Shown here: piece after piece, positions 10,306 through 49,200 of the stretch | Numbering within the stretch: position 1 is the stretch's first letter | How the letters are laid out: each line of letters opens with the position of its first letter | Notes under the pieces: model-generated | Databases searched by the model: none | What the model was told of the DNA's origin: nothing | What the model saw: the letters and a program-made list of their open reading frames with translations, nothing else | DNA from: Bolinopsis microptera | Lineage: Eukaryota > Ctenophora > Tentaculata > Lobata > Bolinopsidae | Direction of reading: 5' to 3' | Assembly: GCF_026151205.1 (NCBI RefSeq) | Contig: NC_087080.1 | Coordinates: 5,745,096 to 5,809,095 of the forward strand | Length of the DNA stretch: 64,000 bases | Position numbers and translations under genes: made by a program

Positions 10306-10905
10306 AGTGGTAGCAGGAAGTGGCCAGATCGAAAGACCCCACATCTGGTGATGACAATCAGCGAAGAAGGTTTGTTTGGTACTGACGAAAAGGAGATTAG
10401 GAGGAAAGTGGAAAAAATCCACAAACAATTCTCACACCCTCCTAGTGATAAACTGAAAACATTGCTGAAAACTGCAGGATTTAAGAGACCAGAATACATG
10501 AAAGCAATTGATGAGGTATCCAGCAGTTGTAAAATATGTCTGATGTACAAGAAACCCAAGTCAAGACCAGTGGTGGGTCTCCAAAGAGGAAAGGTGTTCA
10601 ACGAATGTGTTGCAATGGACCTTAAGAATGTTCCTGGCACTCCTAATGTGTATATCTTGCATATGATTGATTCGGTGACAAGATATTCAGCAGCTAGAAT
10701 AATCTACAATAAGAAGAAAGAGACAATCATCCAAGGAATTTGCTCTGGATGGATATCCATCTTTGGAAATCCAAAGAAATTCATGGCTGATAATGGTGGA
10801 GAGTTCGCCAATGAGGAGTTTACTGAGATGTGTCAAAGATTCAATGTGGATGTGCAAAATTCAGCTGCCGAGAGCCCTTGGAGCAATGGGATTGTAGCTT
10901 TGTAG
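10306..10905 (+). pseudogene. Copia integrase, N-terminal part (frame broken)
   Basis: The frame encodes the HHCC zinc-binding motif (two His near KIHKQFSH, then CKIC) and most of the catalytic core: the first Asp in ECVAMDLK, the second in FMADNGGEF and the Glu in AAESPWSNG. It stops at 10905 because of an 8-bp insertion around 10893-10900. There is no gag or protease upstream. The open frame nominally starts inside the LTR at 10270, but the true initiation point is unknown, since a gag-pol start has been lost. Confidence 0.85.
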
Positions 10906-16004: not shown

Positions 16005-17399
16005 TTACCATGTATTAGGGTCATCTCGATTTTGGAGGGATAGCAAGTGCTTTTTAAGGTTAGATTTAATAACACCTGACGAAGCTGATAAGTCTGAATT
16101 CTTGGAAGAACCCGGGATTATCAACCCATCTACATTAGCATCACATATTTCGAATACATAGGGGCTGAGGTCATTCCAAATTTTCGTAGAGGTGTACAAA
16201 AAGTTCTGTTGGGAGATATCTAACCTCAGTAATGGGACAATCAGACGAAGTTTTTCATTTCTAGGACAGAACTTGAAAAGATCTTTAATCGACTGGGGGA
16301 CATCAAATTTAAGAATTTTGAATAATTCCATAAATGTATGGTACATGTGCAGATTCTCCAGGTTCATAATTTTCTGCTCGGTGAATAGCGGTTTAGTGTG
16401 TTCAAGACAGTAGTTCTTGCTAGCCATATGTTCGTTATAAGTTCTTGAACGTGCACAGGTTAAATAGTATTCTTTATGATCAAAATTGGGAATGTTACCA
16501 AATAGCAGTCTTATACATCGTTTTTGAATTGCAAAGATTTTATTCAGCTTATGTTTAGGGATCCCACCCCAGCAACTTATACAATAGCTAAGATGTGACA
16601 TAAAAAGAGCATTGTATAGTTTCAAATATTCAGATTTGGGAATGAATTTGCAAATTCTCTTAATCGATACAATACTGGAGTTCAGCTTTAAAGATAAATG
16701 ATTAAGATGTGGTTCCCAGCTTAGCTGTTCGTCTATTATCACCCCAAGAAACTTTGTACATTGAACTTTTTCTAGCTTTTTGCCATCTATTAAAATCGTT
16801 AGATTCCTGTTAAAGGGCCGTGTTCTGGCACAGGTCTGTGTTGCTCTTGACAAACCTGGCTGAAAATGCATATAACAACTTTTCCCTGCATTTATATGTA
16901 ACTTGTTAGACTCCATATAGTTACTGACTTGTTTCATTACATGATTAGCTTTTTCAAAAGCTTCCTGTGCTGAACTACCTATCACAAAAATATTTGTATC
17001 ATCAGCAAACAGGACGAATTCAGCCAAGCTTGAGGAGCTCACAATATCATTTATATAAATCAGAAATAGTAGAGGTCCTAACACTGACCCCTGGGGTACA
17101 CCATACTCAACTGAACACTTGTCCGACTTTTCAGTTTGAAAAGAAGTTACTTGGCTACGGTTTGTTAGATAGCTAGCAAGAGTTTTTAGTGCAATACCTC
17201 TTACTCCATAGTGTTCAAGTTTATGCAGGAGTTTATCGTGCTCAATTGTGTCAAATGCTTTACTTAGATCAATAAATATTCCAATTACATGATTTTTCTG
17301 TTCAATCTCATTAAGTATTTTATTGACAGAATAGTTTACGGCATGAGATGTTGAGTGTTGTTTTCTAAAACCAAATTGTCGATCATAAATCACGTTCAT
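16005..17399 (-). pseudogene. LINE reverse transcriptase, main part
   Basis: The 464-codon frame contains the RT core motifs: FGFRKQHSTSHAV, GIFIDLSKAFDTIEHDKLL, YGVPQGSVLGPLLFLIYIND and the catalytic FADD (in LFADDTNIF). The thumb and C-terminal region follow with the usual FLGVIIDEQLSWEPH. No RNase H follows. The apparent Met is only where the track opens; the same frame extends upstream in sequence but is disconnected from the preceding piece by a one-base loss near 17511. Confidence 0.88.
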
Positions 17400-17431
17400 A
17401 GCACTGAGGTAATTATATAACCTATTATAGA

Positions 17432-17959
17432 TTATTTTTTCAAGTATTTTTCCAAATAACGGTAATGTAGAAACAGGACGATAGTTATCAAGGCATCGTG
17501 AGTCTCCTTTTTATAAATTGGTGTAATAGAGCCCGTTTTAAGCTTGTTTGGAAAGACCCCATTGTCCAAGAACCAATTAAAGAATCTAGAGATATGACCA
17601 GACAGATAATTTACACTCTTTTTTAAGACTTTAACAGAGATATCACTTGCCTTCCCATTTTCAAGGCTACCAATGATTTTACTTATCTCTTCCTCGTCAC
17701 AGGGGCTGAGAAAAAAAGAGTTCACTATTCTTTCTCTGCCCTTGAGGTATTGTTTAAACTTCGTCTTAATAAAATTGCCATCAGTTACCGTACGAGATGG
17801 TACAGAAGATTGAACTTTTGAATTAAGATTACGAGCAATAGACGAGAAGTAGATGTTAAATCCGTTAGCAATCTCACGGCGTTCAGTTACAATTCGACCA
17901 TCAATTAAGAATGATGCTTTTATATCTTTTTTAGATTTACCCCTGAGTTCGTTAATCAA
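17432..17959 (-). pseudogene. LINE reverse transcriptase, N-terminal part (frame-shifted segment)
   Basis: This piece carries the linker between endonuclease and RT and the first RT motif (FPNKLKTGSITPIYKK). After KK the frame goes wrong: one G appears to be missing near 17511, since the neighbouring frame then reads the conserved DNYRPVS-type motif. At its start it is out of frame with the endonuclease segment by one A in the tract near 17968. Confidence 0.8.
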
Positions 17960-22884: not shown

Positions 22885-25800
22885 GTCAAACGTTGTTGGC
22901 TTATGAAGTCTCTCCCGATGAATCCCACCCCATTTGTAATGACCTTAACTCAGATCAAGTCGCAACTTTGTGTGGAAAGGTAAAATTTGAAAATATTTCC
23001 TTTTATTTTTCTGTTTGATATTCCTATTCAGTTATTATAAGATTTTAAAGATACCTAATTTACATTTCCACATGGAAAATGTTTAATCTGCCTTTTAACT
23101 AATGTTTACTTCCCGATTAGGTTGATAAATGTGCGGGCAAGCTTGGAATTGTGACCAACCTAACATACCCTTCTTCTTACCCTCCTTATATTACTGATGA
23201 TGCCTTTACCTTTTATTCAGACCCTTATTGTGGGATTAGTATTATCTGTTTTGATCCTGCAACTCACTGCTTTCTACCTGAACTAAAGAACGGGTGAGTT
23301 AGAGTTTCAACTGATTAGCAGCTCACTACCTGCCTTGTTCATAATGCTCCATTCTATCTTTACCAGCCATAAAAACAACTACACCTGTTATTTGAAGAGG
23401 ACGTTTCAATAATCTACTGTAAACAAGAATTGCGCCCGTTGTTTCGTTTTGGCGGACGCTAGATTTCCATTTCACTATAACTATTAATATAAGCTCTAAT
23501 CAGCTCACCTTATAATAATAATATTGAAACATCAGTAGACTACGCGTGCCACATTCAAGTTGGGCTTATTACAAAATACTATACATTACTAGTATACATT
23601 AAAATACGCTCGTGCCGCGCATTCATTGACCACAGACTAGCTATACACCACATCTCCGCAAGCAATCCCCGTGCGCGTGCGCGCGGCAAGTTGACATGGT
23701 AACGAACGGAAGCAAGTAAGTAAGTAAGGAACACGACATATATTTGACCCACCTACCGCTATCTCCAAAATCCACGATTTTCTGCAAAAACGTCCATTCG
23801 TAACCTTTCACTATTGCCTTTTTTCAAAAGGGTGAAAAGGAAAAAATAACCACTTTAGTAATCTACTATCAGTGAAAGCAGTATTAATGACATTCTCACT
23901 TTTCAGAACTAAGTGCCTAATATAATTAAGATATAACATCTGAACAGTTTTATTCCTGTTCCATATGATCGAGGATAGTCAGGGCTACAAAACCTGACCA
24001 AGTTTAGCTCAATCCAGTACTGCGCGTTCGAGATATGAGGTTAAATATACCAAAAATAGGGGTTTTCTGGTGTGACATCATTGTAAATTTTTTGGAGTAT
24101 AACCTCAATATCTCACAAACTATCCATTTGTGGTCTTTCTGAGTTACACTATCTGTTTCCTCTGGCAATTTCGGTTCAGAGTCAATTAAGTTTGAAACAA
24201 AATCTCAGTAAATGTGAAAGTTCTGAGGATATCAAGTTTGTAACAAGCGCGCGCGCGCGCGCGCGCGCACACACATATGACCTCATATCTTCCACATTTA
24301 ATGATTTTTCATGGAAATTCTTTCACCATCTTGTAGCACTCATGTGCTGAGTAGGATAGCATTCTAATCATGTCTTTAAAAGCTTTAGATAGATACTGAG
24401 GAAGAAAATTCATACTTGTAACAAGCGCGCGCGCGCGCGCGCGCATGGCCCATACTATATGATCAATGGACGGGAGGATTAAAGTACTTTCATACACACC
24501 AGCATGCTCATTGATGGCTTAAAATGAAGCTAAGACATACTCCTATCAGATCCACCATAAGTTAGATACCATAATAATCATTAAATGTGTCTAAAATGAG
24601 GAAGCTTTGACAAGTGCGAGTGGTTTTGGCAAATTTTGGTATAAAATGGGCCCTGAGATCATATTTTTCTCATTAAAATCACATATATCACGTATATTTA
24701 TGTGTGTTGGGTGTATCCTCATTGGTATCAACCATTTCAATCATCAAGAGCAGCTTTCCTGATTCTTTATCTCATGAAAATGGGCAAAAAAGCTCATAAA
24801 TAGTCCAAAACCGGTCATTTTCGCCGCTTTAATAACCTCATTCCTGGCACCCAGAACACTTTGGGTACTCAAAACATAATTTTTCGGATACCTCAGACCC
24901 CTAACTAGCACATGGAGCCAGAAAGAACAGCATGTAGAGACTTTTAAATTTCCATGGTTGAGAACCCAATGTCACACTATTCGTTCATTAATCCTGCTTT
25001 CACTGCTATAGTCTTTAAAATCTTTGTTCCTCAGAAGGTATCGAGATTCCGACCTGGCAGAGTTCAATGAAGATTTGCTGGCTTCCGGCGATAGACTGAA
25101 AATCGATTGTAAAAAAGGCTTTACTTGGCACTGGGCTGATTTTGTAACTTGCCTTAAGGTTCGTTCTAATCATGATTACTGTGTGCTGTCACTCTCGATT
25201 TTAACTTTATCGGGGCGTTTCTTGATTTAAAATTGGTATTCTGTTAATCAGTGTTAAAATTATCGTCAGAAAACTTTTTCTTTGTGTGAACAGCCCGGAA
25301 CAATATCAATTTAATTGTAATACTCCAATGATTTATACGGAACTGAAGAAGATCTTGTGTTTCAGATGAGTTCAGGAGAGAGCAGATTATCTATTGAGCC
25401 CCTGTGTGTGCCCCTTTCTGAAGATAATCTCATGACTCTACTTGTCAATGTAACCAGTAAGTTAGATCACCAAACTTCTTATTGATTGAATTCTGCACAT
25501 GTGCTAGCTGAATGGTGAGCATGGTTTTACTGATAGTCAGTGTGAATTCTACGTGAGTCAGCTTCCATGTTGCTATTTAAAGATGACGTCATCAAATTAT
25601 TTATATTTAACTTGATAATAAAACAGTTTAGAAGTTACGATATTGTGGCTAGTCCGCTAAATAACCCGTGATCCATAGAGAAGGTGAAGCAAAAGAGGTC
25701 CGAAGTGTATTGTGTATTTTCCAGTTGCATGACTATCACATTGAGTGAGTGAAAGAGTTGTGTGAAATATTGTGAAACAGTGAAATAGTTGTGTGAAATA

Positions 25801-28228: not shown

Positions 28229-31200
28229 GTTGGTATGTTTTTGGTATGTTTCTATTATGTTTCCCAATCAAAGGGTGGTATGTTTCTAGTATGTTTCCCA
28301 AGAAAAGGTTGGTATGTTTATAGTGTGTTTCCCAATCAAAGGTTGGTATGTTTTTAGTATGTTTCCCAAGAAAAGGTTGGTATGTTTATAGTGTGTTTCC
28401 CAAGGAAAGGTTGGTATGTTTCTACTATGTCTCCCAACCAAAGCTTCAAAGGTTGGTATGTTTCTAGTGTGTTTCCCAAGGAAAGGTTGGCATGTTTCTA
28501 GTGTGTTTCCCAAGGAAAGGTTGGTATGTTTCTAGTGTGTTTCCCAATCAAAGGTTGGTATGTTTCTAGTGTGTTTCCCAAGGAAAGGTTGGTATGTTTC
28601 TAGTGTGTTTCCCAAGGAAAGGTTGGTATGTTTCTAGTGTGTTTCCCAATCAAAGGTTGGTATGTTTCTAGTGTGTTTCCCAAGGAAAGGTTGGTATGTT
28701 TCTAGTGTGTTTCCCAATCAAAGGTTGGTATGTTTCTACTAGTGTGTTTCCCAAGGAAAGGTTGGTATGTTTCTGGCATTTTTCTGGTATTTTTCTCAAT
28801 CAAAGGTTGTAAATGTAACACTGTTTGTATTGTCGCGATCAGAATTAAAAGTGATGAATTCTTGTGTCAACCTACTGTATTCTCGATTATACAAATGTGC
28901 ATGTTATCACGTTTTAACATGGTGTTGTCAGATTAAATTGACCTTTGAAATCACCGAAAATTACTGTTGCTAATATGTATTTTGCTAGTATATCTCTATC
29001 ACACTGCACAGGCCAACGTCATTTGAAAGAAAAAAACTATCAAATAATACAACTTTTACCATGGGAAAATAAATTAAAATACTGCATTCCTGTGATTTGA
29101 ATTTAGAAAGCTAGAGAACACATTTAGTTCGACGATTTTCGTTCTGGCCAGAAGATAGAGCTTACTATCAAGAGATTAAGCCTTGTGATTGGAATTCAAC
29201 TCAAATCCTGCCAATTACTGATCTGGAATTTAAGTTTTGTCAAATATCACGATCTTATCAGTCAACAGATATAAATTCATTGAAATAACTTGAAATGAAT
29301 TTGTGCCAGCCGACATACAGTACACGCCTACCACGTGCAACCTCTGCGCTTTTAATTTAAACTCTTAGAAGAAAATAGATTTGAGCACTCGTTAAGTATT
29401 GTTGACATGTTGGTCGTCTGATTGACTGCTCGGACCGGAAAGCAGGGATGTCGGTCTAACCCGCGTCTATTAGTGCGTCTTTACTTGACCTTGTACGTGA
29501 TCTAAAAAGTGATTACTTTATAGGTCACGTGGTCTAGAAAGTGAATACTTTACAGGCTACGTGACCTAGAAAGTGAATACTTTATAGGCTACGGTTATGA
29601 GGTTGTGAGCTAAGCTGGAATCCTTAGGTTTTTAATGTGAGTAAAGACAGCGGCAGCGTGTCTTGCGGTGTACTTTGAAAACGAGAATTGTGTTCTTAGG
29701 TCTGATTACTATTTAATCACGAGCGTATGAGCAATTATATCATTTGTACAAGATAGTAAAATTTCTAAAAATCGCACAATTTCTCGTACAATTGCTCGCT
29801 CATGCGCGAACCAGTCGACTCCTGCGGAGACTAAAGACTTAGGAAACTAGGAAATTTCAAAGCTACTTACTTTCTGATTCATGCCAAAAACATTCAGCGT
29901 TTTACAACACAGACGTAGCTAAGATATGATGGAATGTGAAACAATGATGTACTTCTTAACCCATCCTTGTTACTGAAACAGATACAGATAATAAAGATTC
30001 ATTATGTTTCAGTACACTAGACAGCTACAGATATAAATATTTGTTGTGTTTCAGTATGACGTAGTTCTGGAGAGTTACTGTCGACTGAAATATTGTGGAA
30101 GTTCGAACTACGAGGATTGTCAGAAGATTCCCATGATGAGGTTCTACTCGTTTCCTAAACCAACCATTCCATGTACATTCCAGGGTACGTTAGTTTACTA
30201 TTTCTCCGGTTTGGTTCCTTACTATACTTTAAACAATTTTATTTGAATAAAGCATAGTTCTGGAGTAGTCATACATATTACAATGAAAGAAATTTAACTA
30301 GAGGTTAGTATGGTGGTCAAGGGTTATAAATCCTACTTTAAGTTTCCCTTAATTCGAATTGATAGTCTAGAATCTAGAATTAGATATATTATACAGACTG
30401 GTTCAGAAATTCAGTAATGGTTCAGAAATTCGGTAATGGTGGGCAAGGGTCTCCGGCTCTAAGTGGTAGAATTTAGGATTCCCTTATTTCGAATTGTCAG
30501 TCGTTATATACAGATGATATAGACTGGTTCAGATATTCGGTATTGGTTCAGAAATTCGGTAATGGTTCTCATGACACATTGGCTATGCTACACTTAAATG
30601 GTTGTCTCTCAAAACAATTCCCTCGTTCATATACGACAACTTGTGACAGGACAGGGAGCTTCAACTTCACCATAAATGGTTAAATGACCTAGCCTGCCAC
30701 TACTAAGGCAGCAGGTACAGTCTCGTATTAATCCAGGGAAATAGAGCGACAGTCTCATGTTGTGTTTGGTAAGGGATACTACGGGGATACTCACAGCTGT
30801 AATAATCATTTCACCCGCGCAGCATAGTTACCATGGCAGCCACGTGTAATGTTACATATTCATCCACGTGTTTTTGTAACTAAACCATTTTCTCACCATT
30901 TTTCATGACGAGCTGTCACACAATGGCACGTATGCCGTCATACACATCATGTTCAGGTATGAGATAATGGGAACTAACCCCACCTAGTTCTTCACTATCT
31001 TTAGTTCTCCTGTCGTACCTGGCCAGTCAGTGTGTTAAGTGGGGAGAAGTTTCTAGAAACATGGGGAGTTTGAAGGCTGTCTTGTCGACCAGATTAGCAA
31101 CATCTTGCCAGTTTCCATATAGACTGCCTTTAACTGTATTATTGGCGTTAATGCAATCAATTAATTCGTATCAATGTAGAATGGCCGGCACCATGTTAAT

Positions 31201-34200: not shown

Positions 34201-37200
34201 GTTTTAGTGCATTTATCCTTGATATGAGAAATAGATAATGTTATAATTAGCTAAACGCTATAAAATTGCTGAACTTTTGGCATTGATAATCACCAGATTG
34301 TGATGTTAAATGTGGAATGTTGTGCTGTCCTCCCTATTTCGTGAGACCTAGCAGTGTACGCGTCAAGTCTCACCACTGATCACACACACCGAAACAAACG
34401 CAAATATCACTAGAATTTTATATCTAATAGCCATGTCTAACAAAATCTTGGGTAAGTAAAGTGTAAATTAGTTTGGCTGTTTAGTGTACACGTTTAGCCT
34501 GAACATTGGCAGAGTAGGTTGTCAGCTAATTAAACCTAAAAGGGCTACCATTACCGAGGGCTGATTTAATTGACTAACTGCCGAAGTTATGAATTTGGAA
34601 ATCTGGAAATTCTATTGTTATTACCGGAATGTTGAGAATTTGGATTCAGGTTGTGAGGTAGAATTTTTAGTCATCCAATTATAGACCCTGATTAGTTTAC
34701 AATTTATTAAGATGAAAAGAAATTTTGTAAGTGTGGGTTACGCTTGAATGGCTTGAATATATGTTTTGGGCAACCGGCTATGTTTTATTGTAAACACGTG
34801 CGATAAATACTGTCATTTATTTGCTATTTCTGCAACTGATGGAAATCTGGCAGTTTTAGGCTTTGATTTCTCACGTTTCATTTTTAACCAGCACATATTT
34901 CGAACTGTAAAATACGCTGTAGTTGTAGTTCATACGTTTTTTAATCTCTTTTGGAACAGCAGAGAGTGGTGGGCGGTGGCTTCCTTAGCATATTGTAATA
35001 CAAAATGAAATGTCTTTAAGATTTTTTCTAAAAATCAGTGGCAATCTTGACAAAGAATCGGAATTTGTATAATAGCCTGCATATTAATATAACCTACATA
35101 TTAATGTACAAATTCACCGAAAATCTTTTCTTTCCGTAGTTTTACCAAAAAGCTGAGATATTATGATTCCTCATATTTGGAGACATTTTGGAGACATTGT
35201 CTCCATGGGAATTTCATGGGAATTGGAGGGGAATTAGAGGGGAATTACGTATTATTGATATTTAAGCACCTAAATTAGCTGTATATAGCTTAACTGAGTT
35301 CTGGTCTGTCCCTCAAACAAACTAAGACCTTTCACATGCGAAAAGAAGACAAAAAAGGGGGGTGGTGAACCATATTTGCCAAAAAAAATGTCAAAATTTT
35401 GTTTTCCATATTTCGCCCTAAAACGTTTCCAATGAGTTTGGTTGGCACCCTGGTTGATCTGGAAGTACGTTACCAGTTATTTGGGGCCTTCAGGGGGGAA
35501 AATGGGCCGAAAAATGGGCCGAAAAGGGGCATTTTCGGGTGTTTTCAAATTTGAGATTTCAAAGCCAGATTTTCGGCTTTAGTTGGCTGGGACATGCCCA
35601 AATTGGTGTGGGTGAGTTGCATAGAGGTAGTACAAGTGTGATCCGTTGCAGAAATCCGGGTTCCCAAGATTCAAAATGACTTGAAAAGATTTTGTAAAAA
35701 ATTGGAGACATTTTGGAATCCATGGGAATTTTTTGGAGACATCCATATTTCGCCCTAAAACGTCTCCAATGAGTTTGGTTGGCACCCTGGTTGATCTGGA
35801 AGTACGTTACCAGTTATTTGGGGCCTTCAGGGGGGAAAATGGGCCGAAAAATGGGCCGAAAAGGGGCATTTTCGGGTGTTTTCAAATTTGAGATTTCAAA
35901 GCCAGATTTTCGGCTTTAGTTGGCTGGGACATGCCCAAATTGGTGTGGGTGAGTTGCATAGAGGTAGTACAAGTGTGATCCGTTGCAGAAATCCGGGTTC
36001 CCAAGATTCAAAATGACTTGAAAAGATTTTGTAAAAAATTGGAGACATTTTGGATCCATGGGAATTTTTTGGAGACATCCATATTTCGCCCTAAAACGTC
36101 TCCAATGAATTTGGTTGGCACCCTGGTTGATCTGGAAGTACGTTACCAGTTATTTGGGGCCTTCAGGGGGGAAAATGGGCCGAAAAATGGGCCGAAAAGG
36201 GGCATTTTCGGGTGTTTTCAAATTTGAGATTTCAAAGCCAGATTTTCGGCTTTAGTTGGCTGGGACATGCCCAAATTGGTGTGGGTGAGTTGCATAGAGG
36301 TAGTACAAGTGTGATCCGTTGCAGAAATCCGGGTTCCCAAGATTCAAAATGACTTGAAAAGATTTTGTAAAAAATTGGAGACATTTTGGAATCCATGGGA
36401 ATTTTTTGGAGACATCCATATTTCGCCCTAAAACGTCTCCAATGAGTTTGGTTGGCACCCTGGTTGATCTGGAAGTACGTTACCAGTTATTTGGGGCCTT
36501 CAGGGGGGAAAATGGGCCGAAAAATGGGCCGAAAGGGGGCATTTTCGGGTGTTTTCAAATTTGAGATTTCAAAGCCAGATTTTCGGCTTTAGTTGGCTGG
36601 GACATACCCAAATTGGTGTGGGTGAGTTGCATAGAGGTAGTACAAGTGTGATCCGTTGCAGAAATCCGGGTTCCCAAGATTCAAAATGACTTGAAAAGAT
36701 TTTGTAAAAAATTGGAGACATTTTGGAATCCATGGGAATTTTTTGGAGACATCCATATTTCGCCCTAAAACGTCTCCAATGAATTTGGTTGGCACGCTGG
36801 TTGATCTGGAAGTACATTACCAGTTATTTGGGGCCTTCAGGGGGGAAAATGGGCCTAAAAATGGGCCGAAAGGGGGCATTTTCGGGTGTTTTCAAATTTG
36901 AGATTTCAAAGCCAGATTTTCGGCTTTAGTTGGCTGAGACATGCCCAAATTGGTGTGGGTGAGTTGCATAGAGGTAGTACAAGTGTGATCCGTTGCAGAA
37001 ATCCGGGTTCCCAAGATTCAAAATGACTTGAAAAGATTTTGTAAAAAATTGGAGACATTTTGGAATCCATGGGAATTTTTTGGAGACATCCATATTTCGC
37101 CCTAAAACGTCTCCAATGAGTTTGGTTGGCACCCTGGTTGATCTGGAAGTACGTTACCAGTTATTTGGGGCCTTCAGGGGGGAAAATGGGCCGAAAAATG

Positions 37201-40200
37201 GGCCGAAAGGGGGCATTTTCGGGTGTTTTCAAATTTGAGATTTCAAAGCCAGATTTTCGGCTTTAGTTGGCTGGGACATGCCCAAATTGGTGTGGGTGAG
37301 TTGCATAGAGGTAGTACAAGTGTGATCCGTTGCAGAAATCCGGGTTCCCAAGATTCAAAATGACTTGAAAAGATTTTGTAAAAAATTGGAGACATTTTGG
37401 AATCCATGGGAATTTTTTGGAGACATCCATATTTCGCCCTAAAACGTCTCCAATGAATTTGGTTGGCACCCTGGTTGATCTGGAAGTACATTACCAGTTA
37501 TTTGGGGCCTTCAGGGGGGAAAATGGGCCTAAAAATGGGCCGAAAGGGGGCATTTTCGGGTGTTTTCAAATTTGAGATTTCAAAGCCAGATTTTCGGCTT
37601 TAGTTGGCTGGGACATGCCCAAATTGGTGTGGGTGAGTTGCATAGAGGTAGTACAAGTGTGATCCGTTGCAGAATTCCGGGTTCCCATGATTCAAAATGA
37701 CTTGAAAAGATTTTGTAAAAAATTGGAGACATTTTGGAATCCATGGGAATTTTTTGGAGACATCCATATTTCGCCCTAAAACGTCTCCAATGAGTTTGGT
37801 TGGCACCCTGGTTGATCTGGAAGTACTTTACCAGTTATTTGGAGCCTTCAGGGGGGAAAATGGGCCGAAAAATGGGCCGAAAAGGGGCATTTTCGGGAGT
37901 TTTCAAATTTGAAATTTCAAAGCCAGATTTTCGGCTTTAGTTGGCTGGGACATGCCCAAATTGGTGTGGGTGAGTTGCATAGAGGTAGTACAAGTGTGAT
38001 CCGTTGCAGAATTCCGGGTTCCCATGATTCAAAATGACTTGAAAAGATTTTGTAAAAAATTGGAGACATTTTGGAATCCATGGGAATTTTTTGGAGACAT
38101 CCATATTTCGTCCTAAAACGTCTCCAATGAGTTTGGTTGGCACCCTGGTTGATCTGGAAGTACGTTACTAGTTATTTGGGGCCTTCAGGGGGGAAAATGG
38201 GCCGAAAAATGGGACGAAAAGGGGCATTTTCGGGTGTTTTCAAATTTGAGATTTCAAAGCCAGATTTTCGGCTTTAGTTAGTTAGTTGGCTGGGACATGC
38301 CCAAATTGGTGTGGGTGAGTTGCATAGAGGTAGTACAAGTGTGATCCGTTGCAGAAATCCGGGTTCCCAAGATTCAAAATGACTTGAAAAGATTTTGTAA
38401 AAAATTGGAGACATTTTGGAATCCATGGGAATTTTTTGGAGACATCCATATTTCGTCCTAAAACGTCTCCAATGAGTTTGGTTGGCACCCTGGTTGATCT
38501 GGAAGTACGTTACCAGTTATTTGGGGCCTTCAGGGGCGAAAATGGGCCGAAAAATGGGCCGAAAAATGGGCCGAAAAGGGGCATTTTCGGGTGTTTTCAA
38601 ATTTGAGATTTCAATTTTCAAAGCCAGATTTTCGGCTTTAGTTGGCTGGGACATGCCCAAATTGGTGTGGGTGAGTTGCATAGAGGTAGTACAAGTGTGA
38701 TCCGTTGCAGAAATCCGGGTTCCCAAGATTCAAAATGACTTGAAAAGATTTTGTAAAAAATTGGAGACATTTTGGAATCCATGGGAATTTTTTGGAGACA
38801 TCCATATTTCGCCCTAAAACGTCTCCAATGAGTTTGGTTGGCACCCTGGTTGATCTGGAAGTACGTTACCAGTTATTTGGGGCCTTCAGGGGGGAAAATG
38901 GGCCGAAAAATGGGCCGAAAAGGGGCATTTTCGGGTGTTTTCAAATTTGAGATTTCAAAGCCAGATTTTCGGCTTTAGTTGGCTGGGACATGCCCAAATT
39001 GGTGTGGGTGAGTTGCATAGAGGTAGTACAAGTGTGATCCGTTGCAGAAATCCGGGTTCCCAAGATTCAAAATGACTTGAAAAGATTTTGTAAAAAATTG
39101 GAGACATTTTGGAATCCATGGGAATTTTTTGGAGACATCCATATTTCGCCCTAAAACGTCTCCAATGAGTTTAATTGGCACCCTGGTTGATCTGAAAGTA
39201 CGTTACCAGTTATTTGGGGCCTTCAGGGGGGAAAATGGGCCGTAAAATGGGCCGAAAAATGAGCCGAAAAGGGGCATTTTCGTGTGTTTTCAAATTTGAG
39301 ATTTCAAAGCCAGTTTTCGGCTTTAGTTGGCTGAGACATGCCCAAATTGGTGTGGGTGAGTTGCATAGAGGTAGTACAAGTGTGATCCGTTGCAGAAATC
39401 CGGGTTCCCAAGACTCAAAATGAATTGAAAAGATTTTGTAAAAAATTGGAGACATTTTGGAATCCATGGGAATTTTTTGGAGACATCCATATTTCGCCCT
39501 AAAACATCTCCAATGAGTTTGGTTGGCACCCTGGTTGATCTGGAAGAACGTTACCAGTTACTTGTACTACCTCTATGCAACTCACCCACACCAATTTGGG
39601 CATGTCTTAGCCAACTAAAGCCGAAAATCTGGCTTTGAAATCTCAAATTTGAAAACACCCGAAAATGCCCCTTTTCGTCCCATTTTTCGGCCCATTTTCC
39701 CCCCTGAAGGCCCCAAATAACTAGTAACGTACTTCCAGATCAACCAGGGTGCCAACCAAACTCATTGGAGACGTTTTAGGACGAAATATGGATGTCTCCA
39801 AAAAATTCCCATGGATTCCAAAATGTCTCCAATTTTTTACAAAATCTTTTCAATTCATTTTGAGTCTTGGGAACCCGGATTTCTGCAACGGATCACACTT
39901 GTACTACCTCTATGCAACTCACCCACACCAATTTGGGCATGTCTCAGCCAACTAAAGCCGAAAACTGGCTTTGAAATCTCAAATTTGAAAACACACGAAA
40001 ATGCCCCTTTTCGGCTCATTTTTCGGCCCATTTTACGGCCCATTTTCCCCCCTGAAGGCCCCAAATAACTGGTAACGTACTTCCAGATCAACCAGGGTGC
40101 CAACCAAACTCATTGGAGACGTTTTAGGGCGAAATATGGATGTCTCCAAAAAATTCCCATGGATTCCAAAATGTCTCCAATTTTTTACAAAATCTTTTCA

Positions 40201-43200
40201 AGTCATTTTGAATCTTGGGAACCCGGATTTCTGCAACGGATCACACTTGTACTACCTCTATGCAACTCACCCACACCAATTTGGGCATGTCCCAGCCAAC
40301 TAAAGCCGAAAATCTGGCTTTGAAATCTCAAATTTGAAAACACCCGAAAATGCCCATTTTTCGGCCCATTTTCGCCCCTGAAGGCCCCAAATAACTGATA
40401 ACGTACTTCCAGATCAACCAGCGTGCCAACCAAACTCATTGGAGACGTTTTAGGGCGAAATATGGATGTCTCCAAAAAATTCCCATGGATTCCAAAATGT
40501 CTCCAATTTTTTACAAAATCTTTTCAAGTCATTTTGAATCTTGGGAACCCGGATTTCTGCAACGGATCACACTTGTACTACCTCTATGCAACTCACCCAC
40601 ACCAATTTGGGCATGTCCCAGCCAACTAAAGCCGAAAATCTGGCTTTGAAATCTCAAATTTGAAAACACCCGAAAATGCCCCTTTTCGTCCCATTTTTCG
40701 GCCCATTTTCCCCCCTGAAGGCCCCAAATAACTGGTAACGTACTTCCAGATCAACCAGGGTGCCAACCAAACTCATTGGAGACGTTTTAGGGCGAAATAT
40801 GGATGTCTCCAAAAAATTCCCATGGATTCCAAAATGTCTCCAATTTTTTACAAAATCTTTTCAAGTCATTTTGAATCTTGGGAACCCGGATTTCTGCAAC
40901 GGATCACACTTGTACTACCTCTATGCAACTCACCCACACCAATTTGGGCATGTCCCAGCCAACTAAAGCCGAAAATCTGGCTTTGAAATCTCAAATTTGA
41001 AAACACCCGAAAATGCCCCTTTTCGGCCCATTTTTCGGCCCATTTTCCCCCCTGAAGGCCCCAAATAACTGGTAACGTACTTCCAGATCAACCAGGGTGC
41101 CAACCAAACTCATTGGAGACGTTTTAGGGCGAAATATGGATGTCTCCAAAAAATTCCCATGGATTCCAAAATGTCTCCAATTTTTTACAAAATCTTTTCA
41201 AGTCATTTTGAATCTTGGGAACCCGGATTTCTGCAACGGATCACACTTGTACTACCTCTATGCAACTCACCCACACCAATTTGGGCATGTCCCAGCCAAC
41301 TAAAGCCGAAAATCTGGCTTTGAAATCTCAAATTTGAAAACACCCGAAAATGCCCCTTTTCGGCCCATTTTTCGGCCCATTTTCGCCCCTGAAGGCCCCA
41401 AATAACTGATAACGTACTTCCAGATCAACCAGCGTGCCAACCAAACTCGTTGGAGACGTTTTAGGTCGAAATATGGATGTCTCCAAAAAATTCCCATGGA
41501 TTCCAAAATGTCTCCAATTTTTTACAAAATCTTTTCAAGTCATTTTGAATCTTGGGAACCCGGATTTCTGCAACGGATCACACTTGTACTACCTCTATGC
41601 AACTCACCCACACCAATTTGGGCATGTCCCAGCCAACTAAAGCCGAAAATCTGGCTTTGAAATCTCAAATTTGAAAACACCCGAAAATGCCCCTTTTCGT
41701 CCCATTTTTCGGCCCATTTTCCCCCCTGAAGGCCCCAAATAACTGGTAACGTACTTCCAGATCAACCAGGGTGCCAACCAAACTCATTGGAGACGTTTTA
41801 GGGCGAAATATGGATGTCTCCAAAAAATTCCCATGGATTCCAAAATGTCTCCAATTTTTTACAAAATCTTTTCAAGTCATTTTGAATCTTGGGAACCCGG
41901 ATTTCTGCAACGGATCACACTTGTACTACCTCTATGCAACTCACCCACACCAATTTGGGCATGTCCCAGCCAACTAAAGCCGAAAATCTGGCTTTGAAAT
42001 CTCAAATTTGAAAACACCCGAAAATGCCCCTTTTCGGCCCATTTTTCGGCCCATTTTCGCCCCTGAAGGCCCCAAATAACTGATAACGTACTTCCAGATC
42101 AACCAGCGTGCCAACCAAACTCGTTGGAGACGTTTTAGGTCGAAATATGGATGTCTCCAAAAAATTCCCATGGATTCCAAAATGTCTCCAATTTTTTACA
42201 AAATCTTTTCAAGTCATTTTGAATCTTGGGAACCCGGATTTCTGCAACGGATCACACTTGTACTACCTCTATGCAACTCACCCACACCAATTTGGGCATG
42301 TCCCAGCCAACTAAAGCCGAAAATCTGGCTTTGAAATCTCAAATTTGAAAACACCCGAAAATGCCCCTTTTCGTCCCATTTTTCGGCCCATTTTCCCCCC
42401 TGAAGGCCCCAAATAACTGGTAACGTACTTCCAGATCAACCAGGGTGCCAACCAAACTCATTGGAGACGTTTTAGGGCGAAATATGGATGTCTCCAAAAA
42501 ATTCCCATGGATTCCAAAATGTCTCCAATTTTTTACAAAATCTTTTCAAGTCATTTTGAATCTTGGGAACCCGGATTTCTGCAACGGATCACACTTGTAC
42601 TACCTCTATGCAACTCACCCACACCAATTTGGGCATGTCCCAGCCAACTAAAGCCGAAAATCTGGCTTTGAAATCTCAAATTTGAAAACACCCGAAAATG
42701 CCCCTTTTCGGCCCATTTTTCGGCCCATTTTCCCCCCTGAAGGCCCCAAATAACTGGTAACGTACTTCCAGATCAACCAGGGTGCCAACCAAACTCATTG
42801 GAGACGTTTTAGGGCGAAATATGGATGTCTCCAAAAAATTCCCATGGATTCCAAAATGTCTCCAATTTTTTACAAAATCTTTTCAAGTCATTTTGAATCT
42901 TGGGAACCCGGATTTCTGCAACGGATCACACTTGTACTACCTCTATGCAACTCACCCACACCAATTTGGGCATGTCCCAGCCAACTAAAGCCGAAAATCT
43001 GGCTTTGAAATCTCAAATTTGAAAACACCCGAAAATGCCCCTTTTCGGCCCATTTTTCGGCCCATTTTCGCCCCTGAAGGCCCCAAATAACTGGTAACGT
43101 ACTTCCAGATCAACCAGGGTGCCAACCAAACTCGTTGGAGACGTTTTAGGGCGAAATATGGATGTCTCCAAAAAATTCCCATGGATTCCAAAATGTCTCC

Positions 43201-46200
43201 AATTTTTTACAAAATCTTTTCAAGTCATTTTGAATCTTGGGAACCCGGATTTCTGCAACGGATCACACTTGTACTACCTCTATGCAACTCACCCACACCA
43301 ATTTGGGCATGTCCCAGCCAACTAAAGCCGAAAATCTGGCTTTGAAATCTCAAATTTGAAAACACCCGAAAATGCCCCTTTTCGGCCCATTTTTCGGCCC
43401 ATTTTCCCCCCTGAAGGCCCCAAATAACTGGTAACGTACTTCCAGATCAACCAGGGTGCCAACCAAACTCATTGGAGACGTTTTAGGGCGAAATATGGAT
43501 GTCTCCAAAAAATTCCCATGGATTCCAAAATGTCTCCAATTTTTTACAAAATCTTTTCAAGTCATTTTGAATCTTGGGAACCCGGATTTCTGCAACGGAT
43601 CACACTTGTACTACCTCTATGCAACTCACCCACACCAATTTGGGCATGTCCCAGCCAACTAAAGCCGAAAATCTGGCTTTGAAATCTCAAATTTGAAAAC
43701 ACCCGAAAATGCCCCTTTTCGGCCCATTTTTCGGCCCATTTTCGCCCCTGAAGGCCCCAAATAACTGATAACGTACTTCCAGATCAACCAGCGTGCCAAC
43801 CAAACTCGTTGGAGACGTTTTAGGTCGAAATATGGATGTCTCCAAAAAATTCCCATGGATTCCAAAATGTCTCCAATTTTTTACAAAATCTTTTCAAGTC
43901 ATTTTGAATCTTGGGAACCCGGATTTCTGCAACGGATCACACTTGTACTACCTCTATGCAACTCACCCACACCAATTTGGGCATGTCCCAGCCAACTAAA
44001 GCCGAAAATCTGGCTTTGAAATCTCAAATTTGAAAACACCCGAAAATGCCCCTTTTCGGCCCATTTTTCGGCCCATTTTCGCCCCTGAAGGCCCCAAATA
44101 ACTGGTAACGTACTTCCAGATCAACCAGGGTGCCAACCAAACTCATTGGAGACGTTTTAGGGCGAAATATGGATGTCTCCAAAAAATTCCCATGGATTCC
44201 AAAATGTCTCCAATTTTTTACAAAATCTTTTCAAGTCATTTTGAATCTTGGGAACCCGGATTTCTGCAACGGATCACACTTGTACTACCTCTATGCAACT
44301 CACCCACACCAATTTGGGCATGTCCCAGCCAACTAAAGCCGAAAATCTGGCTTTGAAATCTCAAATTTGAAAACACCCGAAAATGCCCCTTTTCGGCCCA
44401 TTTTTCGGCCCATTTTCCCCCCTGAAGGCCCCAAATAACTGGTAACGTACTTCCAGATCAACCAGGGTGCCAACCAAACTCATTGGAGACGTTTTAGGGC
44501 GAAATATGGATGTCTCCAAAAAATTCCCATGGATTCCAAAATGTCTCCAATTTTTTACAAAATCTTTTCAAGTCATTTTGAATCTTGGGAACCCGGATTT
44601 CTGCAACGGATCACACTTGTACTACCTCTATGCAACTCACCCACACCAATTTGGGCATGTCCCAGCCAACTAAAGCCGAAAATCTGGCTTTGAAATCTCA
44701 AATTTGAAAACACCCGAAAATGCCCCTTTTCGTCCCATTTTTCGGCCCATTTTCCCCCCTGAAGGCCCCAAATAACTGGTAACGTACTTCCAGATCAACC
44801 AGGGTGCCAACCAAACTCATTGGAGACGTTTTAGGGCGAAATATGGATGTCTCCAAAAAATTCCCATGGATTCCAAAATGTCTCCAATTTTTTACAAAAT
44901 CTTTTCAAGTCATTTTGAATCTTGGGAACCCGGATTTCTGCAACGGATCACACTTGTACTACCTCTATGCAACTCACCCACACCAATTTGGGCATGTCCC
45001 AGCCAACTAAAGCCGAAAATCTGGCTTTGAAATCTCAAATTTGAAAACACCCGAAAATGCCCCTTTTCGGCCCATTTTCGGCCCATTTTCCCCCTGAAGG
45101 CCCCAAATAACTGGTAACGTACTTCCAGATCAACCAGGGTGCCAACCAAACTCATTGGAGACGTTTTAGGGCGAAATATGGATGTCTCCAAAAAATTCCC
45201 ATGGATTCCAAAATGTCTCCAATTTTTTACAAAATCTTTTCAAGTCATTTTGAATCTTGGGAACCCGGATTTCTGCAACGGATCACACTTGTACTACCTC
45301 TATGCAACTCACCCACACCAATTTGGGCATGTCCCAGCCAACAAAAGCCGAAAATCTGGCTTTGAAATCTCAAATTTGAAAACACCCGAAAATGCCCCTT
45401 TTCGGCCCATTTTCCCCCCTGAAGGCCCCAAATAACTGGTAACGTACTTCCAGATCAACCAGGGTGCCAACCAAACTCATTGGAGACGTTTTAGGGCGAA
45501 ATATGGATATCTCCAAAAATTTCTCATGGATTCCAAAATGTCTCCAATTTTTTACAAAATCTTTTCAAGTCATTTTGAATCTTGGGAACCCGGATTTCTG
45601 CAACGGATCACACTTGTACTACCTCTATGCAACTCACCCACACCAATTTGGGCATGTCCCAGCCAACTAAAGCCGAAAATCTGGCTTTGAAATCTCAAAT
45701 TTGAAAACACCCGAAAATGCCCCTTTTCGGCCCATTTTCGCCTTCCCCCTGAAGGCCCCAAATAACTGGTAACGTACTTCCAGATCAACCAGGGTGCCAA
45801 CCAAACTCATTGGAGACGTTTTAGGGCGAAATATGGATGTCTCCAAAAAATTCCCATGGATTCCAAAATGTCTCCAATTTTTTACAAAATCTTTTCAAGT
45901 CATTTTGAATCTTGGGAACCCGGATTTCTGCAACGGATCACACTTGTACTACCTCTATGCAACTCACCCACACCAATTTGGGCATGTCCCAGCCAACTAA
46001 AGCCGAAAATCTGGCTTTGAAATCTCAAATTTGAAAACACCCGAAAATGCCCCTTTTCGGCCCATTTTCCCCCCTGAAGGCCCCAAATAACTGGTAACGT
46101 ACTTCCAGATCAACCAGGGTGCCAACCAAACTCATTGGAGACGTTTTAGGGCGAAATATGGATGTCTCCAAAAAATTCCCATGGATTCCAAAATGTCTCC

Positions 46201-49200
46201 AATTTTTTACAAAATCTTTTCAAGTCATTTTGAATCTTGGGAACCCGGATTTCTGCAACGGATCACACTTGTACTACCTCTATGCAACTCACCCACACCA
46301 ATTTGGGCATGTCCCAGCCAACTAAAGCCGAAAATCTGGCTTTGAAATCTCAAATTTGAAAACACCCGAAAATGCCCCTTTTCGGCCCATTTTTCGGCCC
46401 ATTTTCCCCCCTGAAGGCCCCAAATAACTGGTAACGTACTTCCAGATCAACCAGGGTGCCAACCAAACTCATTGGAGACGTTTTAGGGCGAAATATGGAT
46501 GTCTCCAAAAAATTCCCATGGATTCCAAAATGTCTCCAATTTTTTACAAAATCTTTTCAAGTCATTTTGAATCTTGGGAACCCGGATTTCTGCAACGGAT
46601 CACACTTGTACTACCTCTATGCAACTCACCCACACCAATTTGGGCATGTCCCAGCCAACTAAAGCCGAAAATCTGGCTTTGAAATCTCAAATTTGAAAAC
46701 ACCCGAAAATGCCCCTTTTCGGCCCATTTTTCGGCCCATTTTCCCCCCTGAAGGCCCCAAATAACTGGTAACGTACTTCCAGATCAACCAGGGTGCCAAC
46801 CAAACTCATTGGAGACGTTTTAGGGCGAAATATGGATGTCTCCAAAAAATTCCCATGGATTCCAAAATGTCTCCAATTTTTTACAAAATCTTTTCAAGTC
46901 ATTTTGAATCTTGGGAACCCGGATTTCTGCAACGGATCACACTTGTACTACCTCTATGCAACTCACCCACACCAATTTGGGCATGTCCCAGCCAACAAAA
47001 GCCGAAAATCTGGCTTTGAAATCTCAAATTTGAAAACACCCGAAAATGCCCCTTTTCGGCCCCTTTTCGGCCCATTTTTCCCCCTGAAGGCCCCAAATAC
47101 TTCCAGATCTACCAGGGTGTCAACTGTAAATGCCCTCCCTTGTCTATTAGGACAGTTAAAATTTATTCTTATCTTGGAATTCCGGTTCCCAACGATGTTT
47201 TTCGATGAATTTCAGAATTTAAATTTTTGGCATATTTTATCTTCACCATCCTTTTTCACCGGTTCAAAAAACTTTTCTGTCATATTAGAACTGATAACTT
47301 GTAAGATAGATCAGTTTTAGGCTGTTTTGGGCGAAATCTGAAATTGAGAAAATGTCTCCATTTTGAGGAATCATTATATGAAAGCTGATTTTGTGTAACG
47401 CGCGGCGACATTGTAATATTAAGAACGTTCAAGCGCCAACGTTGTGTGTTTACTCACGCGAGTTCTTTTAGCTATTTTGAAACGATTTTGAACGTTTTGA
47501 TCAGTTGTAGATTAAGTCATTAACTCTTTCGAATTTCGAACCCAAGCTCAACTTCACGAACAGCTTACAAATGTAATTCAATTTTCTAGTTAAACGTTTT
47601 ATAATGCATTTCTGATGCAGCTCAAATAGGCTTTATCAAGGGTTGGACTATAGTTGTTATTTGTTTGGGGACCGGTTATTTGCCAGGCCACATGTTGAGT
47701 GTTCTTTAAGGGTTTCGTAGAATATGACCGTGTGTCATTCAACCTTTTGATCTGGATTATTGATTATTACGACTTCTAACTTCAGAGTGCGGAGGAAAGA
47801 TGTTCTCTAATATAATCCATGCTCCATCTCGAGTGAATGGTTTGAATTCTAGGGGTGCCAACTGCATATGGGAGATCAAAACTTCTCAAAACAACACAGG
47901 TTTGCAGATTTTTAGTCACTACAATTATGTTTACTCATTGTTAGACCAGAGCAAACGAAAGTATATTGCTAACAGAATTATTATTTAATTTGCACCATCT
48001 GTTCTCATTTATGGATGTTAGTTTGTTCCACTCATGTGTCATTGTGTCAGGACAATTTTACCAACAGTCGAAAGGCGACAGTAAAAGTTGTAGAAATCCA
48101 GTCAGTTATCTGAAAATTAGAGAGTACGGTTCAGATGGAAATGAGCTAACGGATAAAAGTAACAGGGTACATTTTTAATGGTTTTTGTTTGACAACAAAT
48201 CTCTCATCTTTCTTCTTTTCTATTTATACACTTTATATTTTAGAATATCTGCATCATTGGAATTGATTATTGAAGTACCACCGTAATAACACGATCTATC
48301 ACTATTGTTTAGAATCCAATCAACCCCCTTTCCCCGCTTACATACTTAAATTAATTTCAGGACATTTGTCTTGGTGTCCAAATGAAACTGGGTCCACACT
48401 TTGAAGTTGAATACAACTCGGACGCTCAAAGTGAGCTGGAAAGAAGTTTTATATTCGAGTTCGAGGCAGATATTCCCCGTGAGTTATATTAGAATCACTT
48501 TACTTTTTATTTTAAATTGATTATAATTTTTGATATAATATTGCAATGATCAAAACTTTTCTATAGTACACCCGTTTACAAACTCCAACAAATATAATAA
48601 CTACCTGTTTTCGCTCTTTTGAGTGGGTCGATCATATAATTGATGTTTTGTCCCAAAACATCAATTAAATGAAATATAACATTATATAACAGGGAGTTGA
48701 ACAGTAAAATCGTACTAAAAGTGCATCTAAAACTGCATAAACAGCAGAAAATACATTGTCTCAAGTAAAAGCCAAAAGCCATGCTAACAACAACCCTCCA
48801 CAGTTCAGCCGTGGTATAAGAGGTACATGGCAATACTCATTGCAGCTCCCCTCATCGTTCTCTTCTTCGTGGCTCTCGTCTTTATCGGGGTTTACTGTGA
48901 TCACAAAAACAGGTACAACTTTTCTTAAGACTTTTGTGATACTTAAATTATTTAAAACCAATTGTGATCGAGTGTTGACCTCCCAAATTGATCAAATGAT
49001 TCCAAACTTGTTTTCTCCCCACAGGAAGGAACGAGGAACATCTTCTCCGGTAATACAAATGGAGTACGGTGATCAGATCAGTAACGGAACATGGAAAGCG
49101 AATGATAGTTTTAAGAAAAATAGTGTCATAGAGGACGAGGCTATTTCACCTCAGCCGAGGTGAGGAAATTTTAATTAAATTGAAATGGTGTTTGACGCTG

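What the first reader, a model, noticed from the sequence alone, without database searches (positions are those of the whole stretch)
35149..47388. A 12.2-kb foldback-type element built from inverted 337-bp satellite arrays, with TIRs and an 8-bp target duplication
Seen directly: AAAGCTGA occurs immediately outside both ends. Imperfect inverted termini (about 28 of 33 positions) lie just inside, and between them are 12 satellite units in one orientation and 22 in the other. The satellite unit contains the inner TIR segment TTGGAGACATTTTGGA. Known: Drosophila Foldback and Galileo elements have long inverted arms made of tandem repeats. Inference: a TIR transposon expanded its own subterminal sequence into a satellite that can move as a unit. 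This would link DNA transposition and satellite birth, on a much larger scale than the usual foldback arms, and it sits in an intron of a host gene.
Basis: partly seen in the sequence, partly recalled or inferred. Interest (0 to 1): 0.88.

Follow-up and report, generated by a model that had tools for sequence, protein, structure and literature searches.

The report
Foldback transposon with satellite-array arms
A mobile DNA element in an unnamed animal genome carries two mirror-image arrays of a 337-base repeat; its copies tend to insert one way round beside GCGCGC tracts, and a short sequence in its ends and repeats differs by one base between two lineages, which links DNA transposition, satellite growth and target choice.

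Summary
The element is 35157-47380 (12,224 bp) between 8-bp duplications AAAGCTGA, with about 12 satellite units one way and 22 the other. The own genome holds 16 copies with both ends (609 bp to 12.2 kb): 12 with exact 8-bp duplications, 3 with one mismatch, 1 with none. Paralogous empty sites were found for 3 of 9 copies tested; this copy's own site has none. It is a recently mobile, non-autonomous foldback-type TIR element; the closest published case is Tetris of Drosophila virilis.

Beyond that: (1) of two subfamilies, one has only GGAGACA (303 against 0) and the other only GGAAACA (110 against 0) in ends and satellite. In the outermost 108 + 34 end columns the four such sites are the only fixed differences. 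I read this as a transposase-binding site that changed specificity, so the arms would be arrays of inward-facing sites. (2) This copy and one on C3 share a centre junction in opposite orientation: arms recombine. (3) Insertion is oriented: a CGCG/GCGC tract lies within 100 bp outside the right duplication in 16 of 16 copies, on the left in 1 of 16.

The "intron" claim is not supported. No transposase source was found.

The parts
35149..35156 (.). left copy of the 8-bp target site duplication AAAGCTGA
   Evidence: flank join query overlaps by exactly 8 bp
35157..35404 (+). left end: TIR GATATTATGATTCCTCA... and left-specific sequence
   Evidence: 23 genome matches with 35149-35400; alignment of 16 left ends
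35179..35185 (+). GGAGACA motif copy 1 of the left end (faces inward)
35190..35196 (+). GGAGACA motif copy 2 of the left end (faces inward)
35198..35204 (-). GGAGACA motif copy 3 of the left end (the one outward-facing copy)
35405..39564 (+). left arm: 12 full 337-bp units plus 80 bp
39560..39564 (.). centre junction (unit position 80 | 234, 5-bp overlap); the same junction, reversed, is the centre of the C3:15661072 copy
39560..47124 (-). right arm: 21 full units plus two partial ones, opposite orientation
47125..47380 (+). right end: right-specific sequence and TIR ...GAGGAATCATTATATG
   Evidence: 36 genome matches with 47085-47388; alignment of 16 right ends
47353..47359 (-). GGAGACA motif copy of the right end (faces inward)
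47381..47388 (.). right copy of the target site duplication AAAGCTGA
47399..47407 (.). CGCGCGGCG tract beginning 11 bp outside the right duplication (target-linked motif); further GCGC/CGCG at 47433 and 47457

Best explanation
The window holds one copy of a non-autonomous, foldback-type cut-and-paste DNA transposon. SHOWN: it has short imperfect TIRs and makes 8-bp duplications with no strong sequence preference in 16 copies; paralogous empty sites exist for 3 copies; the arms are arrays of a ~337-bp unit whose number varies from under one to 22 per arm. SHOWN, in the eight copies scored: motif copies GGA[G/A]ACA face inward in both arms except one in the left end (lost in the 609-bp copy). 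SHOWN, in 16 copies as far as read: the fourth base is G in every copy of the motif in one subfamily and A in every copy in the other. SHOWN: the right end lies next to a CGCG/GCGC tract. INFERRED: GGA[G/A]ACA is (part of) the binding site of a transposase supplied in trans, most likely a Mutator-like one. Each added unit adds two inward-facing sites, which would explain why the arrays are inverted and expand. The two subfamilies follow two transposases with different base preference. Arms recombine with each other (interior flip), change length by unequal exchange, and break and rejoin at their palindromic centre. The right-end complex is guided to a GCGCGC-type site, possibly promoter DNA.
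For: Copies and ends. Duplications: (12 of 16 exact, 3 with one mismatch, 1 none). Empty sites. Sister subfamily with inverted arrays of 336-356-bp units. Motif: GGAGACA 303 and GGAAACA 0 in 11 main copies (three of them partly unread), 0 and 110 in 5 sister copies. In columns 1-108 of the left end and 1-34 of the right end the only fixed differences between 10 main and 5 sister copies are the 4 motif sites. Flip. Oriented target. 88 Mutator-like (PF10551) matches in the same genome. Published precedents: binding sites in foldback repeats, PMC3688188; 8-9-bp duplications without preference in a foldback Mutator-like element, PMC5225508.
Against: No transposase gene was found within a paired copy, so binding is not tested and the superfamily is open. 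Searches for P-type, hAT and KDZ transposases did not complete. The motif test is post hoc, and its column limits were set where the next differences begin. Over the whole aligned ends there are 6 fixed differences in 140 left columns and 35 in 173 right columns, giving 4.5e-5 for the left and 0.20 for the right motif site. Satellite copies are not independent. The control is mixed: sister copies keep 2-8 GGAGAC[CGT] each but also carry 3-14 GGAAAC[CGT], main copies 0-1. One paired copy (C11:12052387) lacks a duplication; 3 of 16 lack the first GCGC tract, and one paired left end, one unpaired left end and 5 of 12 unpaired right ends break the target rule. Evidence that the GCGCGC sites are promoters is thin.
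Confidence: 0.7

Rival explanations
1. The arrays are an ordinary satellite or an assembly artefact, and the short termini and AAAGCTGA are chance.
For: Arrays are hard to assemble, and one small contig (C76) does hold stuttered satellite that looks artefactual.
Against: 16 paired copies, 12 with exact 8-bp duplications that differ between copies; empty paralogous sites for three of them; copies read in full agree in anatomy.
Confidence: 0.02
2. The motif switch is not about transposase binding: the three left-end copies were homogenised by conversion, and the right end and unit changed by chance or together in one founder.
For: The three left-end copies lie within 26 bp; the right end differs at 35 of 173 columns and the units at 79 of 337; GGAAAC[CGT] is also commoner in sister copies.
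Against: Conversion cannot easily reach the right end and the unit, whose contexts differ. The three motif sites are the only fixed differences between subfamilies in the first 108 left-end columns. No mixed copy exists among 16 as far as read.
Confidence: 0.28
3. The oriented GCGCGC association reflects open promoter chromatin plus selection against the other orientation, not recognition of the tract.
For: Right flanks include a TOP2 start and a WD40 exon, and 4 of 16 have a stretch above the non-coding maximum of a crude codon score within ~700 bp in the outward direction; GCGCGC in the window far exceeds shuffles (25 against 0.94), so it is a genomic feature.
Against: The spacing is tight: first tract 2-14 bp after the duplication in 13 of 16. 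Selection can act on orientation but hardly on a 12-bp range. One copy (C7:20088588) sits in a repeated ~0.7-kb TIR element and still obeys the rule.
Confidence: 0.35
4. The satellite moves by another route (extrachromosomal circle, Helitron-like capture) and the ends are passive.
For: An interrupted single-orientation array without ends in the 9.8 kb read (C22:57803-66772) shows units outside elements.
Against: 8-bp duplications and TIRs at both borders; empty sites have one duplication copy.
Confidence: 0.03

Closest known systems
Tetris (foldback transposon of Drosophila virilis; PMC4079207: abstract, sections 10 and 19 and passages seen)
   Same: Non-autonomous; long inverted arms with ~220-bp tandem repeats; 8-10-bp duplications; the repeat shares a 37-bp stretch with the outer end; array size varies; repeats also form satellite arrays; the authors propose that repeats add transposase sites.
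   Different: Here the longer arm is 7.6 kb with ~22 units (Tetris TIRs up to 1,735 bp); two subfamilies show a one-base motif switch; an interior flip and an oriented target site are seen. No sequence comparison with Tetris was made.
Galileo (P superfamily; PMC3688188: abstract and sections 2.5 and 2.6 seen)
   Same: Foldback-like arms with long direct repeats that hold extra transposase (THAP) binding sites; one subfamily's THAP domain binds other subfamilies' ends weakly or not at all.
   Different: 7-bp duplications (recalled); binding was footprinted there, only inferred here; the sites were in two of four repeats there, typically two per unit here; no P-type transposase could be tested for in this genome.
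Muta1 of Aedes aegypti (Mutator-like, type 2 foldback; PMC5225508: passages seen)
   Same: 8- or 9-bp duplications without sequence preference; short terminal motif plus subterminal tandem repeats; many non-autonomous derivatives with variable repeat number.
   Different: Muta1 repeats are 12 bp and it encodes its transposase; here units are 337 bp and no transposase is encoded.
Dada (DNA transposons targeting small RNA genes; PMC3706591: listing and start of abstract seen)
   Same: A DNA transposon with a defined target.
   Different: Dada targets multicopy RNA genes; here the shared feature of the sites is a GCGCGC-type tract at a range of spacings, and the window copy's site matches nothing else in the assembly.

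Membership tests
Foldback-type element (structural class) | long inverted arms built of tandem repeats between short terminal sequences | tested here: met
   the 609-bp and 891-bp copies have little arm left
Foldback-type element (structural class) | mobile, with target duplications and empty sites | tested here: met
   empty sites for 3 of 9 copies tested, none for the window copy
Tetris family | sequence similarity to Tetris ends or TIR-220 | not tested
   no insect repeat library was at hand; structural likeness only
Mutator-like (MULE) | 8-11-bp duplications without sequence preference | tested here: met
   8 bp, no strong preference by position in 16 copies; also fits other superfamilies
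Mutator-like (MULE) | mobilised by a MULE transposase sharing its TIRs | tested here: inconclusive
   88 PF10551 matches in the genome. By eye against the pattern hits none lies inside a paired copy; the nearest to an end is C7:10589183, ~2.4 kb outside a decayed right end. No 17-base end motif with 3 or fewer mismatches in the 8 MULE loci read, of 88
hAT | 8-bp duplication and TIR beginning YARNG (consensus recalled) | tested here: not met
   8 bp met, but the ends begin GATAT/CATAT; hAT transposase search unanswered
P superfamily / Galileo | THAP-domain transposase sharing its TIRs | not tested
   PF12017 search did not complete
Dada | insertion into snRNA or tRNA genes | not tested
   no Rfam or tRNA scan of the flanks was run; the C8 copy lies upstream of TOP2

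The most novel reading that the evidence does not exclude
A eukaryotic cut-and-paste transposon family that (a) builds both arms from a satellite whose unit is a cassette of inward-facing transposase sites, (b) has changed specificity by one base at every site in ends and satellite, leaving two co-resident lineages that follow different transposases, and (c) chooses targets with a fixed orientation: the right end is placed 2-14 bp plus duplication from a GCGCGC-type tract, usually with another tract 45-82 bp away, probably at promoters, through a tether to whatever binds that tract.
Probability: 0.5. Interest if true: 0.88.

Novelty: new variant of a known kind. Interest (0 to 1): 0.78.

Why it matters
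It gives a natural series, from 609 bp with almost no unit to 12 kb with about 34 units, in which satellite growth inside a transposon can be followed. The motif switch makes the idea that foldback repeats are transposase-binding arrays testable by one base. The oriented, motif-spaced insertion would be unusual for a eukaryotic DNA transposon and could reveal a host factor that guides integration.

Tried and rejected
Autonomous copy: I looked at long open frames in 16 loci that match one end (by eye, no family search on them) and at MULE genes near ends (compared by eye). None was found. The ~178-bp stretch at the centre of the C11:6162875 copy that matches a MULE locus is a filler between the arms that also occurs twice in that MULE locus; I do not read it as part of an autonomous element.

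Unit-by-unit comparison of this copy with the C3 copy shows no mirrored run of units: the shared ancestry is visible only at the centre junction. The flip therefore rests on that junction and its shared variant.

Within-copy homogenisation (101 units, most copies only partly read then) is modest: mean within-copy divergence is below between-copy divergence in 9 of the 11 copies with at least two units, not in C11:12052387 and C11:16740349.

The GGAGAC[CGT] control for the motif switch came out mixed and is not claimed as clean.

Intron claim: no gene was shown to span the element. Pfam gave nothing for the four ORFs tested nearest to it (26692, 30968, 48741, 49490); UPF0193 (21118) and MRE11 (54461) lie further out. 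A possible start codon lies ~410 bp outside the right duplication, but its 62-aa frame matches no family.

Pfam also gave nothing for the right-flank frames of the C1:5907187, C5:505567 and C8 copies; the C8 frame was recognised as TOP2 only by the structure-sequence search.

Full report
WHAT IS THERE. TRF finds 12.2 and 22.5 copies of a 337-bp unit in opposite orientation at 35405-39564 and 39560-47099. The ends lie at 35157 and 47380, with AAAGCTGA directly outside both. The own genome is 264.65 Mb in 232 contigs; the window is C9:5745096-5809095.

OTHER COPIES. The left end has 23 matches and the right end 36 (the tool calls such counts lower bounds). The pattern ATATWATGATTCCTCA has 87 hits with up to one mismatch, 44 of them exact; its reversed control has 27 with up to one mismatch. 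Sixteen copies have both ends: C1:5907187 (3,005 bp), C1:7297866 (1,479), C3:15661072 (8,504), C5:505567 (8,766), C6:20386323 (8,316), C7:2457266 (609), C8:9934580 (4,633), C9:5780252 = this window (12,224), C11:12052387 (8,654), C12:4091274 (4,931), C12:8886098 (891), and five of a sister subfamily: C5:16134976 (2,887), C7:20088588 (3,425), C9:4191746 (3,999), C9:16032867 (3,751), C11:6162875 (2,700). C6, C11:12052387 and C12:4091274 were read only in part (one search shows the gaps). The 8-bp flanks are identical in 12 of 16, differ by one base in 3, and do not match in 1 (C11:12052387). No cross-pair of 240 has fewer than 2 mismatches. A further copy is split: the right end at C5:13224240 and the left end at C5:13245708 carry GTCAGGAC and its reverse complement, as a ~21-kb inversion with one break inside the element would leave.

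EMPTY SITES. The joined flanks of this copy match only its own two flanks, overlapping by exactly 8 bp: no empty copy of its site is assembled. Of nine other joins tested (only 40 of 1,282 candidates were scored, so misses mean little), three have matches running across the join: the C6 copy at 1 place, the C1:7297866 copy at 9, the C7:20088588 copy at 23. Six of these 33 places were read and none holds an element at the join. C6:20132600 matches at 98% over 248 bp without a gap, with one GACAAATG. Two places for C1:7297866 match at 92% with two or three small gaps and have one ATTTTCTA where the copy has CTTTTCTA. Three places for C7:20088588 match at 97-98% over 156 bp (28 bp of it left of the duplication) with one CTTCTGAA. 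The last target is a repeated ~0.7-kb element with 35-36-bp TIRs.

THE SISTER SUBFAMILY. C5:16134976 was read in full: the same kind of termini, then inverted arrays of a 336-356-bp unit. The consensus units of the two subfamilies differ at 79 of 337 aligned positions (83 main and 18 sister units). Units in both orientations are seen in all five sister copies. So the inverted-array plan is shared by both subfamilies.

THE MOTIF SWITCH. Ten main copies (C1:7297866, an older copy, left out of the count) and five sister copies were compared at both ends. Fixed differences in the left end are at columns 26, 37, 45, 109, 110 and 133 of 140; the right end has 35 in 173, the first at column 25 and the next at 35. 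So the outer 108 + 34 columns hold four fixed differences, and all four are the fourth base of the four GGA[G/A]ACA copies there. Four random columns of 142 would do this once in 16.2 million, but motif and limits were chosen after seeing the data. Over the whole aligned ends the chance is 4.5e-5 for the left and 0.20 for the right. Both copies per satellite unit switched too. As far as read, the 11 main copies (C1:7297866 included) hold 303 GGAGACA and no GGAAACA; the five sister copies hold 110 GGAAACA and no GGAGACA. These are mostly tandem copies, not independent events. As a control, sister copies keep 2-8 GGAGAC[CGT] each but also carry 3-14 GGAAAC[CGT], where main copies carry 0-1, so the specificity of the switch to the full motif is only partly shown. 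In the eight copies scored, motif copies face inward except one in the left end, which the 609-bp copy has lost. I infer a transposase-binding site, as shown for Galileo repeats (PMC3688188) and proposed for Tetris (PMC4079207).

CENTRES AND FLIP. The place where the arms meet differs between copies: unit positions 80|234 here, 234|80 in C3, 101|133 in C5:505567, 139|306 in C6, 329|131 in C11:12052387, 146|309 in C12:4091274, 47|120 in C1:5907187. C8 has a short rearranged piece at its centre and C11:6162875 a ~178-bp filler. None of the 11 main-family centres is a perfect palindrome. The 28-mer over this copy's junction occurs only here and, reversed, in C3 among the 16 copies as far as read, with a shared variant. 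The two insertions have different duplications, so the interior was turned relative to the ends in one of them, most simply by recombination between arms. Away from the junction, unit order no longer matches.

THE TARGET SITE. This was noticed while building the joins. With the 16 copies drawn left end to right end, a CGCG/GCGC tract starts 2-14 bp outside the right duplication in 13; one starts 45-82 bp out in 15; at least one lies within 100 bp in 16. On the left side the last figure is 1 of 16. Within 30 bp of the end the counts are 13 of 16 against 1 of 16, with a window background of 2.9%. The exceptions for the near tract are C1:7297866, C12:8886098 and C11:12052387. Of 19 unpaired right-end places, two had no usable end; of the other 17, duplicated flanks were collapsed and one abutted by another copy was dropped, and 7 of the remaining 12 have the tract within 30 bp; among 6 unpaired left ends 1 has it. 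The tract is present at the empty paralogous sites read, so it was there before insertion. Both subfamilies show it. The flanks are otherwise unrelated apart from two short local matches. Downstream of the right end lie the TOP2 start (C8; PDB chain 6zy5_B, E 2e-12) and a WD40 exon (C6). A crude codon score, trained on seven stretches, gives values above the maximum of 14 non-coding chunks (11.0) within ~700 bp in the outward direction in 4 of 16 right flanks; on the left only in C8, where the frame looks like a LINE by eye. Beyond 700 bp such values occur on both sides. A promoter reading is plausible, not shown.

WHICH SUPERFAMILY. 8-bp duplications without strong preference, short termini and subterminal repeats fit Mutator-like foldbacks such as Muta1 (PMC5225508, passages seen). 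The genome has 88 PF10551 matches, but none lies within a paired copy. hAT-type ends do not fit (consensus recalled). P, hAT and KDZ transposase searches did not complete. Membership stays open.

NOVELTY. The kind is known: Tetris is a foldback element with tandem-repeat arms that fed a satellite. I saw no report of a one-base motif switch through ends and satellite, or of an oriented GCGCGC-spaced target, in the listings of the searches that were answered. These cover open-licence papers only; two searches were aimed at target choice and none at the motif switch.

Noticed in passing
window 47389-47490 and flanks of 15 other copies: Oriented GCGCGC/CGCG tracts outside the right end of the 16 paired copies (developed in the report).
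   Followed up: yes
G000:C76:5844-16500 (L002, L092): After two or three good units the contig continues as homopolymer-stuttered satellite with ~430-bp spacing, which looks like a sequencing or assembly artefact; this small contig should not be counted as a real array.
   Followed up: partly
G000:C22:57803-66772 (L091): Interrupted single-orientation array of the 337-bp unit, 81-98% identity, without element ends in the 9.8 kb read: possibly an escaped, older satellite array.
   Followed up: partly
G000:C5:13224240 and C5:13245708 (L016, L043): The two ends of one split copy lie ~21 kb apart with duplications in reverse-complement orientation, as after an inversion with one break inside the element.
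   Followed up: partly
G000:C2:584262 (L069): 24 bp of left end followed at once by a GCGCGC tract and no element: may be an imperfect excision footprint that keeps the target rule.
   Followed up: no
L098 235-914, L099 142-821, L100 181-872: A repeated ~0.7-kb element with 35-36-bp TIRs (TACAGTGGGGTGACATATG...) and a GCGCGC tract just inside one end; host of the C7:20088588 insertion.
   Followed up: partly
window 24247-24268 and 24425-24444: Two (GC)n runs of 22 and 20 bases, 178 bp apart, in a 38% GC window; GCGCGC is far above shuffles (25 matches against 0.94).
   Followed up: no
window 28241-28774: 15 copies of a 34-bp tandem repeat (TTGGTATGTTTCTAGTGTGTTTCCCAAGGAAAGG).
   Followed up: no
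window 10827-13337 and 16005-17510: A copia-type reverse transcriptase frame (RVT_2) and a LINE-type one (RVT_1), each in a long open frame with further open frames beside it.
   Followed up: no
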